A DNA stretch of 64,000 nucleotides from Blastococcus haudaquaticus. Lineage in GTDB: Bacteria > Actinomycetota > Actinomycetes > Mycobacteriales > Geodermatophilaceae. Positions within the stretch are counted from its first letter, which is position 1. Every line of letters begins with the position of its first letter. Shown piece by piece: positions 4,939-50,266 of this stretch. Location: assembly GCF_900230285.1 (NCBI RefSeq), contig NZ_OCNK01000001.1:558001-622000 (forward strand), written 5' to 3'. The notes under the pieces are model-generated. The model ran no database searches. It was not told the origin of the DNA and saw nothing but the letters and a program-made list of their open reading frames with translations. Made by a program: the position numbers and the translations under genes.

Positions 4939-5783
4939 GCCTTCTCCTCGGAGTTCTCGTCGGCGGCCGGCTTCTCAGCGGCAGCCTTCTTGGCCGGGGC
5001 CTTCTTGGCAGCGGCCTTCTTGGCCGGCGCCTCGGACGCCGTGGTCTCGACGGTGCCCTCGCCCTCGGCGGGAGCGACCGACGGGATGCCGGTGACGACC
5101 GTGGTGGAGACGTCCGGCAGCTGCTTGCCCTTGGCGGGGCCGGCCACGAACTCGGCCAGCGCCGTCTCGGTGAAGACGACCTCGTCGGCGACCAGCACGT
5201 CGTAGGTGTTGAGCTGGCCGGCCTCGATCAGGTGCACCTGCGGCACGTTGCGCAGGCTCACCCAGTTGAGGACGTCGTCCCGGTCGAGCACGATCAGGAC
5301 CCGCTTCGCCTGGGTCACCGCGTTGAGGGTGGCCAGGGCGGCCTTGGTCTTGGGGGCGTCGCCGTCCACGAAGGCGGAGACCACGTGCACCCGGCCCTCG
5401 CGGGCCCGGTCGGAGAGGGCGCCGCGCAGGGCGGCGGCCTTCATCTTCTTCGGGGTCTTCTTGGTGTAGTCACGCGGCTGCGGACCGTGGACGATGCCAC
5501 CGCCGGTGAACTGCGGCGCGCGGATCGAGCCCTGACGGGCCCGGCCGGTGCCCTTCTGGCGGTAGGGCTTGACGCCACCACCGCTGACCATGGCGCGCGT
5601 CTTGGTCGCGTGCGTGCCCTGGCGGGCCGCGGCGAGCTGCGCCACGACGACCTGGTGCATCAGCGAGACGTTCGCACTGGCGTCGAAGAGCTCACCGGGC
5701 AGCGTCACGCTGCCGGAGGTCTCCCCCGCCGGAGTGCGGACGTCGACCTGACGGTCGGTGCGCGTGTCGATGGACTGGCTCAC
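4935..5783 (-). CDS. rplD: 50S ribosomal protein L4 (uL4) with Lys/Ala-rich tail
   Basis: L4 is a tunnel protein and, in other bacteria, an autoregulator of the S10 operon. The tunnel loop [19 protein letters not shown] near residue 68 and [15 protein letters not shown] identify it. At 282 residues it is longer than the usual 200-220. The extra C-terminal part is acidic, then carries AKKA-type repeats ([20 protein letters not shown]) resembling the tails of actinobacterial nucleoid proteins, and ends with acidic residues. ATG at 5783 overlaps the rplC stop by four bases. Confidence 0.96.
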
Positions 5784-6891: not shown

Positions 6892-8085
<1,194 letters not shown>

Positions 8086-44755: not shown

Positions 44756-47302
44756 TCAGGTCCGGACGAACAGCCGCCGGTGCGTCGCTCCCGGAGCCGC
44801 CGACCGGACGCCCGTGCGGGCCAGGAGCCAGCTCTCCAGCCGGTCGTCCGGCAGCGGCCGGCTGACCAGGAAGCCCTGCAGCTTGTCGCAGCCCATCTCG
44901 GCCAGGAGGTTGCGGGTCAGCTCGTCCTCGACGCCCTCGGCCACGACGCGGAGACCCAGGTTGTGGGCCAGTTCGATGATCGAGCGGGCGATGAACGACT
45001 CCCCCTGGCTGGTGCTCATCCCGAGGACGAAGGACTTGTCGATCTTCACCTCGTCGATCGGCAGCTGGCGGAGCTGGGAGAGCGACGAGTAGCCGGTGCC
45101 GAAGTCGTCCATCGACAGGCGCAGGCCCAGCCCGTGGAGGTCGGCGAGCACCGTGCTGTCGCGGACCGAGTCGTCGACGACGCTGCCCTCGGTGAGCTCC
45201 AGCGTGAGCAGCTCCCCCGGCACGCGGTGCCGCTGCAGGGCTCCCCGCACGCGGTCGACGAGGTCGGGCTCGGTGAGGCTGTGGACCGAGAGGTTGACCG
45301 CGACCGACAGCGCGATGTCCTGGTCCAGCCAGCGCCGGCACCGGGCGAGCGCGAGGTCCAGGACGTGGTCGGTGACCGCGCCGATGCGGCCGATCTGCTC
45401 GGCGAGGTGGATGAAGTCGTCCGGCGCGATGGCCCCGTACCGCGGGTGCGCCCACCGCACCAGGGTCTCCACCGACACGATGTCGGAGGTCTGGGCGTCG
45501 ATGATGGGCTGGAAGACCACGCTGATCTGGCCGTCGGCCATGGCCTGCTCGAGCTCGGTACCCAGCTGCAGTCGGCGGAGGCTCTGCTGGTCGAGGACCG
45601 GGTGGTAGCTGGCCACTCCGCCGGAGTCGGCCGCGGCGAGCAGGGCGACGTCGGCCCGCTGCATGAGCATCCCGGAGTCGGCGCCGTGCACCGGCGCGGC
45701 CGCCACCCCGATGGTGAGCGTGACCTCCAGGTCCAGGCCCGCGACACGGGCCCGGGTGGAGGCGGCCTCGCGCAGCCGGCGGGCGGCCCGCTCGGTGGCC
45801 TGCAGCGAGAGCCCCGGGAGCAGGACGGCGAACTGCTCGCCCTCCATGCGGGCCAGGACGGCGGCCGGCGGCGCGTGCTCGCGGAGCAGGCCCGCCGTGA
45901 CCAGCAGCAGCTCGTCGCTGGCCGCGTGCCCGAGGGTGTCGGTGACCTCGGTGTAGTTGCCCAGCGCCGCGAGGATGAGGCCGGCGCGCGCGGCGACGGG
46001 GTCGGCGGAGAGCACCTGGTCGATCTCGGCGGCCAGGCGCTGCCGGTTCGGCAGGCCGGTCAGCCGGTCGTGGTCGGCGTCGTAGCGGATCTGGGTGAGC
46101 AGCTGCTGGTGGCGGATGGCCGCGTTGACGTGGGTGAGCATCGAGTCGAGGGCGGCGCGGTCGTTGTCGCCGAAGGAGTGGATGTCGCTCCGCCGGTCGC
46201 AGACCTCGAGGTAGCCCGGCTCCCCCGCGGCGGTCATGACTGCGGCGCCGAGCAGGTCGGAGACACCGCGGCGGTTCAGTGCCGCCGCCTCGACCTCGTC
46301 GGCGCGGGCCAGCGACACCCGCACGGGCCCGTCGGCCGAGTCGACCGCCCGGCGGCGGAAGACGTCGTCCGGGTCGCCCGGGCCGTCGTACCAGACCGCC
46401 CCGTTGTCGGCCACGACGACCATCCGGGGCTCTTCGTCCAGGTACGGGGGCAGCCACAGCGCGACCCGGTCCGCGTTGAGGAGCTCCCGGACCGCCTCCA
46501 CGATCTGGCGCGTGCCGGCCTCGTCGGGCGAGACCTGCTCGACCCGGCGGGCGAAGTCGTAGACGCGCTCGACGCTGTGCCCCTCGCGGGTCACGGCGGC
46601 GAAGCGCCGGTAGACCAGCGCCAGGGCGACGACCAGCGGGGCGATCAGCAGCCAGGCCCACGGGGTGGCGCCGACCAGCAGCAGGACCGCGAGGCCGACG
46701 ACGACGGAGACGGGGCCGATCATCAGCGCGGGGATCAGGAACGAGGCCCACAGCGTGCGGCCGGGGTACCCCTGGGTCGCGGTGATGGCGGCCGCGATGA
46801 GGACGACGCCGAGGATGCTCGCCGCCAGCACGGCGACGAGGTAGGAGACCCAGACGAGCGGCTCGGAGATGTCGCCCAGCGGCATCACCTCGAGGACCGC
46901 GACCGCGGCGCAGGCCTCCAGGACGACCACGGTGACGTTGAAGACCGACTTGGCGCGCGAGTAGCCCTGGACGAGGGAGACGATGCCGACGGCGAAGCCC
47001 CACGCCACCGCCGTCCAGGCGCCACCGACGGCGACCAGGGCCATGACGAAGGCGAGTTCGCTGGGCGACCAGGAGAAGCCCTGCTTGCGGAACTCGAAGT
47101 CGACGTTGAAGGACTCGGCGGCCACCAGACCGACGAACACGGCCAGCAGCAGGACGGGGTCCACGGCTTCGGCTCGCGGCACGAGAACCCACAGGGACAC
47201 CGGGACGGCGACGGCCAGGCCCATCCACGCGACGGTCCACGGGCTGAGTCGCAGCGGCCGGCTGGGCACGCGCTCGTCCTGCTCGGCCACTCGTACCTGC
47301 AT
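44756..47302 (-). CDS. Membrane-bound GGDEF-EAL protein (probable c-di-GMP phosphodiesterase)
   Basis: This 848-residue protein has an N-terminal block of about seven membrane helices (residues 20-250), a GAF-like sensor part, a GGDEF domain and a C-terminal EAL domain. The GGDEF site reads MEGEQF, which cannot support cyclase activity. The EAL domain has ETLVRW instead of EALxRW but keeps NLS, ELTEGS, DDFGTGYSSL, KIDKSF and EGVEDE, so hydrolysis of c-di-GMP is likely. I start it at the ATG at 47302 because a good promoter lies at 47329-47356; an in-frame TTG at 47356 would fall inside the -35 box. Confidence 0.88.
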   Translation of the reverse strand: MQVRVAEQDERVPSRPLRLSPWTVAWMGLAVAVPVSLWVLVPRAEAVDPVLLLAVFVGLVAAESFNVDFEFRKQGFSWSPSELAFVMALVAVGGAWTAVAWGFAVGIVSLVQGYSRAKSVFNVTVVVLEACAAVAVLEVMPLGDISEPLVWVSYLVAVLAASILGVVLIAAAITATQGYPGRTLWASFLIPALMIGPVSVVVGLAVLLLVGATPWAWLLIAPLVVALALVYRRFAAVTREGHSVERVYDFARRVEQVSPDEAGTRQIVEAVRELLNADRVALWLPPYLDEEPRMVVVADNGAVWYDGPGDPDDVFRRRAVDSADGPVRVSLARADEVEAAALNRRGVSDLLGAAVMTAAGEPGYLEVCDRRSDIHSFGDNDRAALDSMLTHVNAAIRHQQLLTQIRYDADHDRLTGLPNRQRLAAEIDQVLSADPVAARAGLILAALGNYTEVTDTLGHAASDELLLVTAGLLREHAPPAAVLARMEGEQFAVLLPGLSLQATERAARRLREAASTRARVAGLDLEVTLTIGVAAAPVHGADSGMLMQRADVALLAAADSGGVASYHPVLDQQSLRRLQLGTELEQAMADGQISVVFQPIIDAQTSDIVSVETLVRWAHPRYGAIAPDDFIHLAEQIGRIGAVTDHVLDLALARCRRWLDQDIALSVAVNLSVHSLTEPDLVDRVRGALQRHRVPGELLTLELTEGSVVDDSVRDSTVLADLHGLGLRLSMDDFGTGYSSLSQLRQLPIDEVKIDKSFVLGMSTSQGESFIARSIIELAHNLGLRVVAEGVEDELTRNLLAEMGCDKLQGFLVSRPLPDDRLESWLLARTGVRSAAPGATHRRLFVRT

Positions 47303-47328: not shown

Positions 47329-47356
47329 AGGCTAGCAGCGGGCCGCCCCTGGACAA
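47329..47356 (-). promoter_or_regulatory. Promoter of the GGDEF-EAL gene
   Basis: TTGTCC (47356-47351) and TAGCCT (47334-47329) on the minus strand are 16 bases apart. The start would be near 47322, 20 bases before the ATG. It lies behind a strong terminator, so the gene is transcribed separately from the peptide gene. Confidence 0.6.
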
Positions 47357-47393: not shown

Positions 47394-47429
47394 CCATCGG
47401 AGCCGCCGGTCTGCTGGCGGCCCCGATGG
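47394..47429 (-). terminator. Terminator of the GAKWNR peptide gene
   Basis: CCATCGGGGCCGCC pairs with GGCGGCTCCGATGG, 14 bp with one G-U, loop AGCAGACC. It begins 20 bases after the TGA of the small gene at 47450 on the same strand. This supports a real transcript covering the small frame. Confidence 0.8.
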
Positions 47430-47449
47430 ATCGGCCGGGACGGTCTAGG

Positions 47450-47557
47450 TCAGGCGGTGGTGCTGCGGTTCCACTTGGCCCCGCGGTTCCACTTGGCCCC
47501 ACGGTTCCACTTGGCTCCACGGACCTGGATCTGACCGGACTGCACGTTGCTACCCAC
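47450..47557 (-). CDS. 35-residue peptide with three GAKWNR repeats
   Basis: The predicted peptide starts GSNVQSGQIQV and then has RGAKWNR repeated three times, ending STTA. It is strongly basic, with three tryptophans. The 18-base DNA repeats differ only at third codon positions (GGA/GGG/GGG and CGT/CGC/CGC), which argues for selection on the peptide. The GTG at 47557 follows GGAGG by four bases; a TATATG box lies at 47606-47601, and a good terminator follows. A longer reading of 75 residues from a TTG at 47677 has no ribosome binding site. I know no function; it could be a secreted, signalling or membrane-active peptide. Confidence 0.45.
   Translation of the reverse strand: MGSNVQSGQIQVRGAKWNRGAKWNRGAKWNRSTTA
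47465..47518 (-). repeat. Three 18-base tandem repeats (GAKWNR codons)
   Basis: The unit GCGGTTCCACTTGGCCCC on the plus strand occurs three times without gaps, with two substitutions in the third copy, all silent in the reading frame of the small peptide. An alternative role as a binding array for a protein is not excluded. Confidence 0.85.
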
Positions 47558-47766
47558 GACGCCTCCAAAGGCATGAGAAATGACCGCGATCTGCGGCAGC
47601 CATATACGCGCGGGGGCAGAGCGTCGTTCAGTACGGACCGCGCTGGAGACATTGCTTCCCGTCACCCGAATGGACAAGCATCGAAGATCACGACCGGGTG
47701 AACGGCACTCGCGTCGTCGCTCTGCGTAAACGAATCAGGACTCGAAGTCATCGAACGGGTGACGGC
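47558..47766. other. Lower-GC gap upstream of the GAKWNR peptide
   Basis: This 209-base stretch between the small peptide and the 701-residue gene is visibly less GC-rich than its neighbours. It carries GTCACCCG at 47660, CGGGTGA at 47694 and CGGGTGAC at 47757, in mixed orientation. No gene is supported; a promoter for the peptide is expected here. Confidence 0.4.
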
Positions 47767-49872
47767 TCAGTCAAACTGCCGTCCGGTCGACTTCGGCCCG
47801 CCCAGACCTTCGAGCACCACTCGCCACCGCTCCGGGGAGATCGGCGGGTCCGGGTCGCCCAGCACGCCCGACGTCCGCCGGTAGGCCGCCTCGGCCTGCG
47901 CTCTCGCGGCGTCGACGCGGGCACTCAGGTCGGGAGGGAGCGTGGCGACGACGTCTGCTCCCGCTACGTCCTCGCCGTAGCGCAACCCTCTGTCGGGCCC
48001 CTGGGTGAAGGTTCCGTCGGCGTTCAGCAGTGGCGGGCCGACGACCTTCAGCCCGTCGGCGATCACGGACACCAGCGGGACGCGGGAGAACGAGGCCACC
48101 TCCAGCACCAGCCCGGCCGAGAAGTTCCAGACCAGCGCCCGCTGCTGCGCCGCGTGCTCGAGCTCGTAGCCGTCCAGTGCATGGCTCAGCCGCTGCCCGT
48201 ACTCCTGGACGGCCACGTAGGCCCCCGGAACGGCGAAGAGGGGCAGTGGTTCGGCCCGGCTGCTGCCCGCGAGGTCGTGGGACTGACCGGCGACCCATGA
48301 CGTGAGTGCTCCCTCGACCGTGGCGGCCGCCTGCCGGTCCACGGTCAGGTAGCCCAGTCCCTGGATGAGGTGGCGCGGCCCGTCCCCGCCGCCCTCGCCC
48401 GCCGCCGACGCGAGCGCGGCAGCCGCCACCTCCACGCGGGCGGCCACCGCACGACCCAGGGCCGGCGCGAGACTCTCGACCGTTCCCCGGTCCGCCGCCC
48501 AGTCCCGCGGACTCGCCTCGGGCAGTCCCCCGCCCACGGCTTCGAGGGCGTACCGGACGGCCTGCTCACCGGCTACTCCGGGCGCGACAGCGGCGTTCTC
48601 GATCACCCGGCCCAGCGCGGCGGCGTCGTCGGCCCAGCTGCGGCCCAGGAGCACGACCCAGGCATCGGGGGACCCCAGGAGCGCAGCGGCCGCGCCGGCA
48701 TCGCCACTGCGGGCCAGGGAACCGACCACCAGGGGGAGCGGATCATCGCGCCGGGTTCCGCGCGCCCCGAGATGGACGGAGACGCGGTCGGCGGCGGCCG
48801 CCCCCGCCCAGTCGCGGGTCATCACGTGCTCGCGGGCGACGATCTGGCGGCCCCACGCAGCCACGGTGGACGCCCCTGGCCCGTTGGATCCAGCGCGCGC
48901 GGCCAGGACCGCGCCCATCCCGACTGCCACGAGGTCGGCTTCGATGGTCTCGTCCCGGGCACGCACGAGCGGTGCTGCCAGAAGTGCACCCACTCGCGGG
49001 TCCGTGCCCTCACCCACGGCACCGAGCGAGGAGGACAGCAGACGTGCGACTGCGCTCGACGGCCCGTGCACGTCGTCCCCGAATGCTCCATCGCCCAGGA
49101 GTCTGAGGGCGGCGCGGAGCCCATCGGCGCCCAGGCCGAGCAGCAGCGCCTGCGCGAAGGGCGCGGACCCGGCAAGGAGCAGGTGGTCCTGCGCGACGTC
49201 GTTGCACGACGAGTCGTCGGCGAGCAGCGCACGAGCCACGACCACGCCGCGGCGGCTCAGGTGGGGGTCTCCCCAGCCCGGCAGCTCCGCGGCGAGGTGG
49301 ACGGCCACCCGGTCGCCGTCGCCGGCGCGGCCGGTGCCGCCCAGCGGACGGCTCGCGTCGGCCAGCACCCTGGCAGTCGCTGCCGCGTCCTCGGCGAGCG
49401 CCTCGAGCACCGCCTCGTGCCTGCGGCGCCGGGCGGCGTCGGCTGCCTCGACCTCGGCCACGATCCCGGCCCACCCCCCGCCTCCGGTCATGACGGCGAC
49501 CTGGGGGTCCGCCAGGTCCCCCAGGCGCAGCTGGGCGGATCGGAAGTCCTCGTCCTGCTCGTCGCGGAGCAGCTCGACCCGCCGTCGCGCATCCCGCAGC
49601 GCCTCCGCATGACTGCTCAGCCGTCCCGCCGCGGTGAGCACCGCCGCCGTCGACGTGCCGGCCAGTCCGGCGACGCGGGCGATCTGGCCCGTCGCTGCCA
49701 CCGCGTCGTCGCCCACCCAGCCGGAGACCGAGGCGCCCGGGCCGTGCAACCGGTCGTCCACGCCGGCCAGGTGGAAGGCGGCACCCGCGAGGTCGCGGAC
49801 CAGGTCGTCGACGGCGCCGGGATCCCCCGGGGGCATGTCGAGGGGCACGGGGCCGGGGAGCACGACCGTCAC
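47767..49872 (-). CDS. Large protein with WXG100-like N-terminus, possible type VII secretion substrate
   Basis: This 701-residue protein has no signal peptide. The first 130 residues are helical with SGWVGDDAVAATGQI, a WxG-like turn, and a heptad-rich LRDARRRVELLRDEQDEDFR helix, resembling WXG100/PPE-type N-termini. The remaining 550 residues are mainly Ala/Leu/Gly/Val-rich helices; a likeness to large DUF6571-type actinobacterial proteins is from memory only. The GTG at 49872 overlaps the stop of the 94-residue gene (GTGA), so the two form a pair. No toxin motif was recognised. Confidence 0.6.
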   Translation of the reverse strand: MTVVLPGPVPLDMPPGDPGAVDDLVRDLAGAAFHLAGVDDRLHGPGASVSGWVGDDAVAATGQIARVAGLAGTSTAAVLTAAGRLSSHAEALRDARRRVELLRDEQDEDFRSAQLRLGDLADPQVAVMTGGGGWAGIVAEVEAADAARRRRHEAVLEALAEDAAATARVLADASRPLGGTGRAGDGDRVAVHLAAELPGWGDPHLSRRGVVVARALLADDSSCNDVAQDHLLLAGSAPFAQALLLGLGADGLRAALRLLGDGAFGDDVHGPSSAVARLLSSSLGAVGEGTDPRVGALLAAPLVRARDETIEADLVAVGMGAVLAARAGSNGPGASTVAAWGRQIVAREHVMTRDWAGAAAADRVSVHLGARGTRRDDPLPLVVGSLARSGDAGAAAALLGSPDAWVVLLGRSWADDAAALGRVIENAAVAPGVAGEQAVRYALEAVGGGLPEASPRDWAADRGTVESLAPALGRAVAARVEVAAAALASAAGEGGGDGPRHLIQGLGYLTVDRQAAATVEGALTSWVAGQSHDLAGSSRAEPLPLFAVPGAYVAVQEYGQRLSHALDGYELEHAAQQRALVWNFSAGLVLEVASFSRVPLVSVIADGLKVVGPPLLNADGTFTQGPDRGLRYGEDVAGADVVATLPPDLSARVDAARAQAEAAYRRTSGVLGDPDPPISPERWRVVLEGLGGPKSTGRQFD

Positions 49873-50153
49873 CGGGCACGCGTCCCGCGGTCCGGGTCGA
49901 GCAGCGCTCGGTCGAGGTCCACCCAGGAGTCGGCGACCGCGGCCACCGTGCCGGCCAGCCACTCGAGCTCGCCCGCGAGGGCCTGGCCCACCATGCGCTG
50001 CACGTCGAGGAACGCCTCGACACCGGCCTGCAGCGCCGCCCCGACGTCCCCCGGCCGGTCGAGCCGGGGTGCGATCTGCGCGGCCTCCGCCGCGACGTCG
50101 CGCAGGCTGCCGGCGAGTGCGTGCACCTCGACGGTGGGCATCTCGATGGACAT
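49869..50153 (-). CDS. Small helical protein, possible WXG100/EspC-like partner
   Basis: This 94-residue protein starts MSIEMPTVEVHALAGSLRDV and is predicted to be two helices, with ELEWLAGTVAAVADSW in the second. Its size and layout fit the small partners of type VII secretion substrates, though the exact WXG motif is absent. It overlaps the 701-residue gene by four bases. There is no Shine-Dalgarno; an internal ATG at codon 5 is an alternative start. Function unproven. Confidence 0.55.
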   Translation of the reverse strand: MSIEMPTVEVHALAGSLRDVAAEAAQIAPRLDRPGDVGAALQAGVEAFLDVQRMVGQALAGELEWLAGTVAAVADSWVDLDRALLDPDRGTRAR

Positions 50154-50235
50154 GGGCGCAGTGTGGTCGAGCGGACGGCTCGCGCGGGAGCGCCGTCCAC
50201 AGGCGCCGCCGCCGGACGCGCCGCCACCCGATCGG

Positions 50236-50266
50236 GTGTCCACAGTGTCCACAGATCCTGTCCACA
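50236..50266 (+). promoter_or_regulatory. Three DnaA-box-like sites in a divergent promoter region
   Basis: GTGTCCACA at 50236 and 50245 and CTGTCCACA at 50258 each differ by one base from the actinobacterial DnaA box TTGTCCACA. They lie between the divergent starts at 50153 and 50304. A TGGACA in the other orientation follows at 50272. Confidence 0.45.

What the first reader, a model, noticed from the sequence alone, without database searches (positions are those of the whole stretch)
47394..47766. Tiny gene for a cationic peptide with three perfect GAKWNR repeats, with its own terminator, upstream of a GGDEF-EAL gene
The minus-strand frame 47557-47450 encodes a short basic peptide with RGAKWNR three times in tandem. 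The 18-base DNA units differ only at silent third positions, as expected when the peptide is conserved. A GGAGG precedes the GTG, a TATATG box lies upstream, and a 14-bp hairpin begins 20 bases after the stop, so it looks like a complete small transcription unit. I know no family for it. Trp-containing short repeats at the ends of some actinobacterial secreted proteins come to mind, from memory only. A secreted, membrane-active or signalling peptide linked to c-di-GMP is possible.
Basis: partly seen in the sequence, partly recalled or inferred. Interest (0 to 1): 0.75.

Follow-up and report, generated by a model that had tools for sequence, protein, structure and literature searches.

The report
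Tryptophan-repeat peptide paired with c-di-GMP sensor
A tiny, species-specific peptide made of repeated tryptophan units sits beside the gene for a membrane sensor enzyme of the messenger c-di-GMP, and similar repeats, often as tails on secreted proteases, sit beside related sensors in many other actinobacteria, which suggests an undescribed signal-and-receptor pair.

Summary
In detail: 35-aa ORF 47557-47450 (-), GGAGG before GTG, three RGAKWN units differing only at silent sites, hairpin after the stop. The TATATG box is not conserved. The peptide is a conserved family: 57 loci (window plus 56 Geodermatophilaceae), 2-5 units each, all units identical in protein in 53 of 57, although the unit changes between species. 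An orthologous membrane-GAF-degenerate GGDEF-EAL gene follows in 52 of 56; the other four are cut off.

The pairing is wider. Relatives of that membrane domain elsewhere in Actinomycetota are often preceded by unrelated ORFs with tandem GxxW units, mostly tails of secreted S8 subtilases: 31 of 57 in a class sample and 17 of 28 in a phylum sample, against 2 of 40 control EAL genes, both of which proved to carry the domain. In reverse, 29 of 33 testable Trp-repeat loci adjoin such a domain. The domain evolves about five times faster than the EAL domain and tracks the peptide unit; its model resembles ECF S-components. I infer that the Trp units are ligands, or ligand precursors, of this sensor. 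I found no description in nine literature searches. Translation, binding and signalling were not shown; how the leaderless peptide would leave the cell is unknown.

The parts
47450..47557 (-). 35-aa peptide ORF, GTG start, MGSNVQSGQIQV-(RGAKWN)x3-RSTTA
47468..47521 (-). three 18-bp units RGAKWN, silent differences only
47562..47566 (-). GGAGG ribosome-binding site
   Evidence: GGAGG or a near form (such as GGGAG) before the start in the aligned relatives
47604..47643 (-). invariant leader core GCGGTCCGTA..GACGCTCTGCCCCCGCG (5' UTR, inferred)
   Evidence: no covariation, so no RNA structure claimed
47649..47677 (-). putative promoter TTGTCC-17-CAATGT (inferred from conservation)
   Evidence: not found by the consensus scan
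47395..47428 (-). 14-bp hairpin after the stop codon, probable terminator without T tract
   Evidence: folded well (z below -2) in 40 of 57 loci by a rough shuffle test
47329..47334 (-). TAGCCT, probable -10 of the GGDEF-EAL gene (inferred)
   Evidence: kept in 20 of 21 aligned loci
44756..47290 (-). membrane domain-GAF-degenerate GGDEF-EAL protein (c-di-GMP phosphodiesterase by motif; start at GTG 47290 inferred)
46551..47233 (-). fast-evolving membrane domain, S-component-like model (protein numbering 20-240; about 8 helices)

Best explanation
The peptide is the minimal form of a Trp-unit (GxxW) partner of the membrane sensor domain of the adjacent c-di-GMP phosphodiesterase. The array carries several copies of one short linear motif. 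The S-component-like domain binds that motif and so sets, through the GAF and degenerate GGDEF domains, the activity of the EAL domain. In other lineages the same role is played by Trp-unit tails of secreted subtilases, which may tether the protease to the receptor or be cut off as signal peptides, or by small secreted Trp-unit proteins. Shown: the gene, its conservation at the protein level, the two-way genetic linkage to this domain and not to EAL genes at large, the fast evolution of the domain and its correlation with the unit. Inferred: binding, the direction of signalling, and that the EAL domain is active. Unknown: whether and how the leaderless Geodermatophilaceae peptide crosses the membrane.
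For: Conserved adjacency: 52 of 56 loci, the other 4 cut off by the locus end. Units identical in protein in 53 of 57 arrays; 393 silent against 18 non-silent codon differences in 1368 comparisons. Class sample: 31 of 57 domain genes have a Trp-unit ORF ending 12-314 nt upstream on the same strand, against 2 of 40 EAL controls, Fisher p 1.9e-7; both positive controls carry a divergent copy of the domain. Phylum sample 17 of 28. Reverse: 29 of 33 testable Trp-repeat loci adjoin the domain (grouped by hand). The partner ORFs are unrelated apart from the unit. Membrane domain: mean distance 0.50 against 0.24 GAF, 0.135 GGDEF, 0.093 EAL. Unit distance follows it after control for the other domains and third codon positions: partial r 0.37, 0 of 1000 permutations (also 0.42, 0 of 2000). 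GGDEF motif degenerate and EAL motifs kept in 37 of 37. Fold like ECF S-components, which bind small ligands; that fold also occurs in receptors with GGDEF and EAL outputs (PMC11109136, passages).
Against: The window peptide and some others (PGTGWHLIT, DGNTWTF, GVNWA, GATWA) have no signal peptide. Linkage is not universal: 26 of 57 class-sample and 11 of 28 phylum-sample domain genes fail the rule; of 20 class-sample negatives looked at more widely one has a divergent Trp-tail subtilase next to it, 16 have nothing, and three have clusters of 3-4 Trp in frames that I judged noise. With a threshold of two Trp the class test is not significant (37 of 57 against 21 of 40). Four Trp-repeat loci do not adjoin the domain. 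Mantel tests on related sequences overstate significance, and a fast domain resolves close relatives better. Foldseek E is only 0.08 at best. No binding or expression data. G024 and G031 have the receptor but no peptide that I could find.
Confidence: 0.45

Rival explanations
1. The Trp units are a surface anchor or structural tail (for cell wall, membrane or matrix). The membrane c-di-GMP enzyme senses or controls the anchored state, but the units are no signal.
For: The commonest partner is a C-terminal tail of a secreted subtilase with up to 25 units, a usual place for anchors.
Against: Leaderless peptides of 18-42 aa with nothing to anchor; the unit follows the fast membrane domain.
Confidence: 0.2
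2. In Geodermatophilaceae the cationic peptide stays in the cytoplasm and binds the enzyme, or nucleic acid, from the inside.
For: No signal peptide; Arg/Lys in nearly all units of this family (pos. 4 K or R in 51 of 57).
Against: Homologous positions elsewhere are taken by proteins with signal-peptide-like stretches, so the Trp units act outside there; the unit tracks the membrane domain rather than GGDEF or EAL.
Confidence: 0.15
3. The Trp-codon-rich ORF is a cis-acting leader that senses charged tRNA-Trp or ribosome stalling and controls the GGDEF-EAL gene.
For: A Trp-codon-rich stretch ends 12-314 nt before the domain in the 31 positives of the class sample.
Against: Residues around Trp are conserved as protein with silent codon variation; hairpin and a separate promoter-like site lie between; divergent arrangements exist (L243, L268, L269).
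Confidence: 0.07
4. A Trp- and Arg-rich antimicrobial or membrane-active peptide, next to the enzyme by inheritance only.
For: Composition like RW-type antimicrobial peptides (recalled).
Against: Linkage recurs across unrelated Trp-unit proteins, many with uncharged units (GASWT, GQAWS, GSSWS).
Confidence: 0.05

Closest known systems
Peptide pheromone-receptor loci of the agr/com type (recalled)
   Same: Variable short peptide beside a variable membrane sensor domain joined to a conserved output domain.
   Different: Output is GGDEF-EAL, not a histidine kinase; tandem homogenised Trp units; no signal peptide and no obvious maturation or export gene at the window locus.
Lap system: LapD receptor and LapG protease (recalled)
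   Same: Membrane GGDEF-EAL protein genetically coupled, in many lineages, to a secreted protease.
   Different: Subtilase instead of LapG; EAL motifs intact; S-component-like membrane domain; the window locus has no protease.
S-component fold of ECF transporters and 5TMR receptors (PMC11109136)
   Same: Foldseek: only coherent group among the 50 matches shown (RibU, ThiT, FolT, BioY), probability up to 1.00.
   Different: No sequence match: no 5TMR or ECF family among Pfam hits up to E 10; best Foldseek E 0.08; longer domain.
Mycosin-like S8 subtilases (TIGR03921)
   Same: Best NCBIfam match of the two Trp-tail subtilases scanned, L107 and L112.
   Different: 130 and 107 bits against a cut-off of 279; C-terminal Trp-unit tail.

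Membership tests
agr/com-type peptide signalling | precursor with export signal | tested here: not met
   no hydrophobic stretch in the window peptide; met by some small partners elsewhere
agr/com-type peptide signalling | peptide and sensor domain variable together, output domain conserved | tested here: met
   with the stated caveat on Mantel tests
agr/com-type peptide signalling | histidine kinase output | tested here: not met
   GAF, GGDEF, EAL
agr/com-type peptide signalling | mature peptide binds and activates the receptor | not testable with these tools
   needs binding or c-di-GMP assays
LapD/LapG | degenerate EAL that binds but does not cleave c-di-GMP | tested here: not met
   EAL motifs kept in 37 of 37
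LapD/LapG | LapG-type protease partner | tested here: not met
   partners read here are S8 subtilases or small peptides
S-component/5TMR fold | S-component fold | tested here: inconclusive
   pLDDT 75, Foldseek probability 0.98-1.00 for the top S-components but best E 0.08
S-component/5TMR fold | sequence match to a known family | tested here: not met
   no such Pfam match for two members up to E 10
Amino-acid attenuator leader peptide | run of cognate codons, antiterminator, biosynthetic genes downstream | tested here: not met
   Trp spaced every 6 codons, GGDEF-EAL downstream
Rfam riboswitch (leader) | match to a known RNA family | tested here: not met
   no relevant match at E up to 10
RiPP precursor | modifying enzyme nearby | not tested
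   ORFs at 44.5-50.5 kb listed but only four proteins scanned with HMMs

The most novel reading that the evidence does not exclude
A peptide-signalling system spread over Actinomycetota: short tandem Trp units, tuned per species and per receptor, released from tiny precursors or from subtilase tails (perhaps by the subtilase itself), are read by S-component-like membrane domains that control c-di-GMP breakdown; concerted evolution of units and receptors creates private signal types.
Probability: 0.3. Interest if true: 0.93.

Novelty: new variant of a known kind. Interest (0 to 1): 0.8.

Why it matters
Ligands of most membrane c-di-GMP enzymes are unknown (general knowledge). Here the genomes themselves name a candidate ligand for a whole class of them, with a short motif that can be synthesised and tested, and they link an undescribed repeat on secreted subtilases to intracellular signalling. 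It would also be a new family of very small proteins.

Tried and rejected
Leader as a known riboswitch: a likeness to the cobalamin riboswitch that I thought I saw was not borne out. Leader as a structured RNA: RNAalifold over 57 leaders gave six invariant pairs and one weak three-pair helix, so no structure is claimed. TATATG as promoter: rejected. Viral origin: the leader pattern gave 0 hits in viral contigs. Loci L031-L086 were picked by the leader pattern, so leader conservation among them is circular; the peptide-based search does not depend on it. Receptor-by-unit matching between paralogues of two genomes: reciprocal-best pairs share 2.8 of 4 flanking residues (5 pairs) against 1.0 (7 other pairs), too few to weigh (a first run had a one-base frame slip of mine; the same slip puts one domain base into the upstream regions, too little to matter). 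Literature: (open-access PMC only; listings seen) found no description of the peptide, the Trp tails or the pair; one paper, PMC11109136, was opened (abstract, outline and found passages).

Rows left out. Class sample: of 68 places besides the window, 3 with under 190 nt upstream and the 8 weakest were not fetched. Of the 57 fetched, 6 had 40-412 nt upstream (1 of these 6 positive) and stay in the count; with at least 900 nt upstream the count is 30 of 51. L119 and L135 show Trp repeats below the rule. Antisense clusters: 6 of 57 cases, 2 of 40 controls, 4 of 28 in the phylum sample. Phylum sample: loci came for 30 of 67 places; L210 (the window) and L211 (same place as L114) were left out; 3 of the 28 counted had 233 nt or less upstream. 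Controls: I picked 42 rows from the capped list, leaving out domain genes by eye; one was dropped by a filter and the first 40 of the remaining 41 used, from 20 of the 30 genomes. Five outlier loci were dropped and restored. In the reverse count one of the four non-adjacent loci (G351:C4) has its other side cut off by the contig end, and one (G051) looks like a chance frame.

Full report
What is there. On the minus strand at 47557-47450 lies a 35-codon ORF with a good ribosome-binding site, three RGAKWN units that differ only at silent sites, and a strong hairpin after the stop. The genus is Blastococcus by inference: genome G011 is called 'same genus', and its contig C28 has the length of the B. 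tunisiensis contig NZ_FOND01000001.1.

It is a gene. A search of 61 genomes and inspection of the hits gave in-frame homologues in 20 other genomes; a search by the receptor added eight more. That makes 29 of the 37 genomes of the family in the sample, own included; two further ones have a version with a signal-peptide-like stretch and GVSWN or GVSWG units (counts by hand). G024 and G031 have the receptor but no peptide that I could find; in the other four no orthologue of the pair was found. A pattern from the conserved leader found 56 stretches in named genomes, all Blastococcus, Geodermatophilus, Trujillonella or other Geodermatophilaceae except one record labelled 'Bacillus sp. AZ43', unverified, which carries a Blastococcus-type locus. 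In these 56 plus the window, peptides are 18-42 aa with 2-5 units; all units are identical in protein in 53 of 57; codons between units differ 393 times silently and 18 times not, in 1368 comparisons. Between species the unit changes mostly at its third and sixth residues (RGAKWN, RGVKWT, RGHKWS, RGNRWG and others), while Arg, Gly, a Lys or Arg, and Trp mostly stay. So the array is homogenised within a species, diverges between species, and is under selection as protein.

Its neighbour. The orthologous membrane-GAF-GGDEF-EAL gene is found directly after the peptide in 52 of 56 loci (match starts 289-501 nt after the leader core); the other four stretches end 176-535 nt after the leader. The gene upstream varies. 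In 37 of 37 full-length orthologues, window included, the GGDEF motif is degenerate (EGEQF in 26, other forms in 11) and the EAL motifs checked are kept. Between peptide and enzyme lie the hairpin and a TAGCCT site, kept in 20 of 21 aligned loci, that looks like a promoter of the enzyme gene.

The wider pairing. Several relatives of the membrane domain outside the family also have a Trp-unit ORF directly upstream, of otherwise unrelated sequence: DGNTWTF, DGGSWTF, DGAGWG; paralogues inside the family have GVSWN, SLRWGGVDY or a subtilase tail. I tested this on a class sample: 148 genomes, 32 with the domain, window's own included; 57 loci from 30 genomes fetched. By a fixed rule (three or more Trp whose five-residue contexts agree at four or more positions, in one ORF, sense strand) 31 of 57 are positive, each ending 12-314 nt before the domain; antisense 6 of 57. 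Of 40 EAL genes from 20 of the same 30 genomes 2 are positive (Fisher p 1.9e-7). Both carry a divergent copy of the domain (E 3e-13 and 1e-14), which leaves 0 of 38; two more controls have very weak domain scores (E 2e-5 and 1e-3) and no Trp cluster in the sense strand. With the rule loosened to two Trp the test fails (37 of 57 against 21 of 40, p 0.29), since G+C-rich frames give chance pairs. A phylum sample gave 17 of 28. In the other direction, a generic Trp-unit query in 20 genomes chosen because they have the domain gave rows that I grouped by hand into 36 loci: 29 adjoin a domain copy (three as a second tandem ORF about 2 kb away, two divergently), 4 do not, 3 end at a contig end. Of 20 negative domain genes examined over a wider stretch, one has a divergent adjacent Trp-tail subtilase, 16 have nothing, and three gave clusters of 3-4 Trp in frames that I take for noise. 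The link is strong but not universal.

Forms of the partner. Of the 31 class-sample positives, 24 are long ORFs with DTG and HGT motifs, most with GTS, and most with a hydrophobic stretch near the N-terminus, that is, probably secreted subtilases; one is a tail cut off by a contig end; six are small (motif reading by script and eye). Of the six, five have a hydrophobic segment followed by units (GTSWH, GSGWH, GATWN, SNGWQ, SHTWE) and one is leaderless, as here (PGTGWHLIT). Other leaderless ones are DGNTWTF, GVNWA and GATWA. Pfam was run on two of the subtilases only (PF00082). The window peptide is thus the minimal form.

The receptor. AlphaFold2 with 40 family sequences gave nine helices and a small hairpin (pLDDT 75, pTM 0.72). 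Foldseek against the PDB returned ECF transporter S-components as the only coherent group among the 50 matches shown (RibU, ThiT, FolT, BioY; probability up to 1.00, best E 0.08). A published study reports that this fold is shared by S-components and 5TMR receptors, some with GGDEF and EAL outputs (PMC11109136; abstract and passages). In 37 loci the membrane domain is the fast part of the protein: mean distance 0.50 against 0.24, 0.135 and 0.093 for GAF, GGDEF and EAL. Unit distance correlates with it after control for the other domains and third codon positions (partial r 0.37, 0 of 1000 permutations; 37 loci; the same with 32 loci after dropping five outliers), and not with GGDEF or EAL; GAF shows a weaker residue (0.19, 18 of 1000). 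Mantel tests on related sequences overstate significance, and a fast domain resolves close relatives better, so this is support, not proof.

Reading. A variable short motif, repeated and homogenised, beside a variable membrane domain on a conserved output module, is the pattern of a ligand and its receptor. The S-component likeness suggests a pocket for a small ligand; a Trp side chain with its neighbours would be a fitting one (inference). Where the units are the tail of a subtilase, the protease may be tethered to the receptor or may release the units. Where the peptide has no signal sequence its route is open, and action in the cytoplasm remains possible. None of these steps was shown here.

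Known or new. No Pfam or NCBIfam model that I could relate to it matched the peptide, the tails of two subtilases or the membrane domain of two members, and nine literature searches in open-access PMC found no description. I file it as a new variant of a known kind, because the proposed logic (a peptide beside its membrane receptor) has precedents, although no defined family that I tested fits.

Noticed in passing
L042, leader copies at 7146-7171 and 4975-5000 (minus): Geodermatophilus sp. DSM 45219 has a second copy of the promoter/leader element about 2.2 kb upstream of the normal one, followed by a different small ORF (MKNLAKEVGRTVRAAMRGWPEAARLCVILAVAAALIAVLQVVTHLAG) instead of a Trp peptide, so the element can serve another gene.
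   Followed up: partly
window 47600-47760 (minus) and homologues: Conserved GTCAC/GTGAC repeats surround the inferred -35 of the peptide gene in most of the 21 aligned loci, like operator sites; regulator unknown.
   Followed up: no
window 47767-50252 (minus): Two genes upstream: a 127-aa ORF with a very weak EspC-like Pfam score (E 0.044) and a large ORF without a Pfam family; a relative of the large one lies upstream in part of the Blastococcus loci.
   Followed up: partly
G281:C39, G205:C21, G327:C81: Two Trp-tail ORFs in tandem before one receptor gene.
   Followed up: no
L268, L269 (genome G351): Leaderless Trp-unit peptides (GVNWA x10 or more, GATWA x6) lie divergently next to receptor genes.
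   Followed up: partly
L058: Record named 'Bacillus sp. AZ43', marked unverified, holds a Blastococcus-type locus (GGDEF-EAL 90% identical to the window's), so the name is probably wrong.
   Followed up: no
L260, L263: Subtilase tails GASWY and GANWY next to a more divergent version of the membrane domain, so the domain family reaches beyond the profile's first cut-off.
   Followed up: partly
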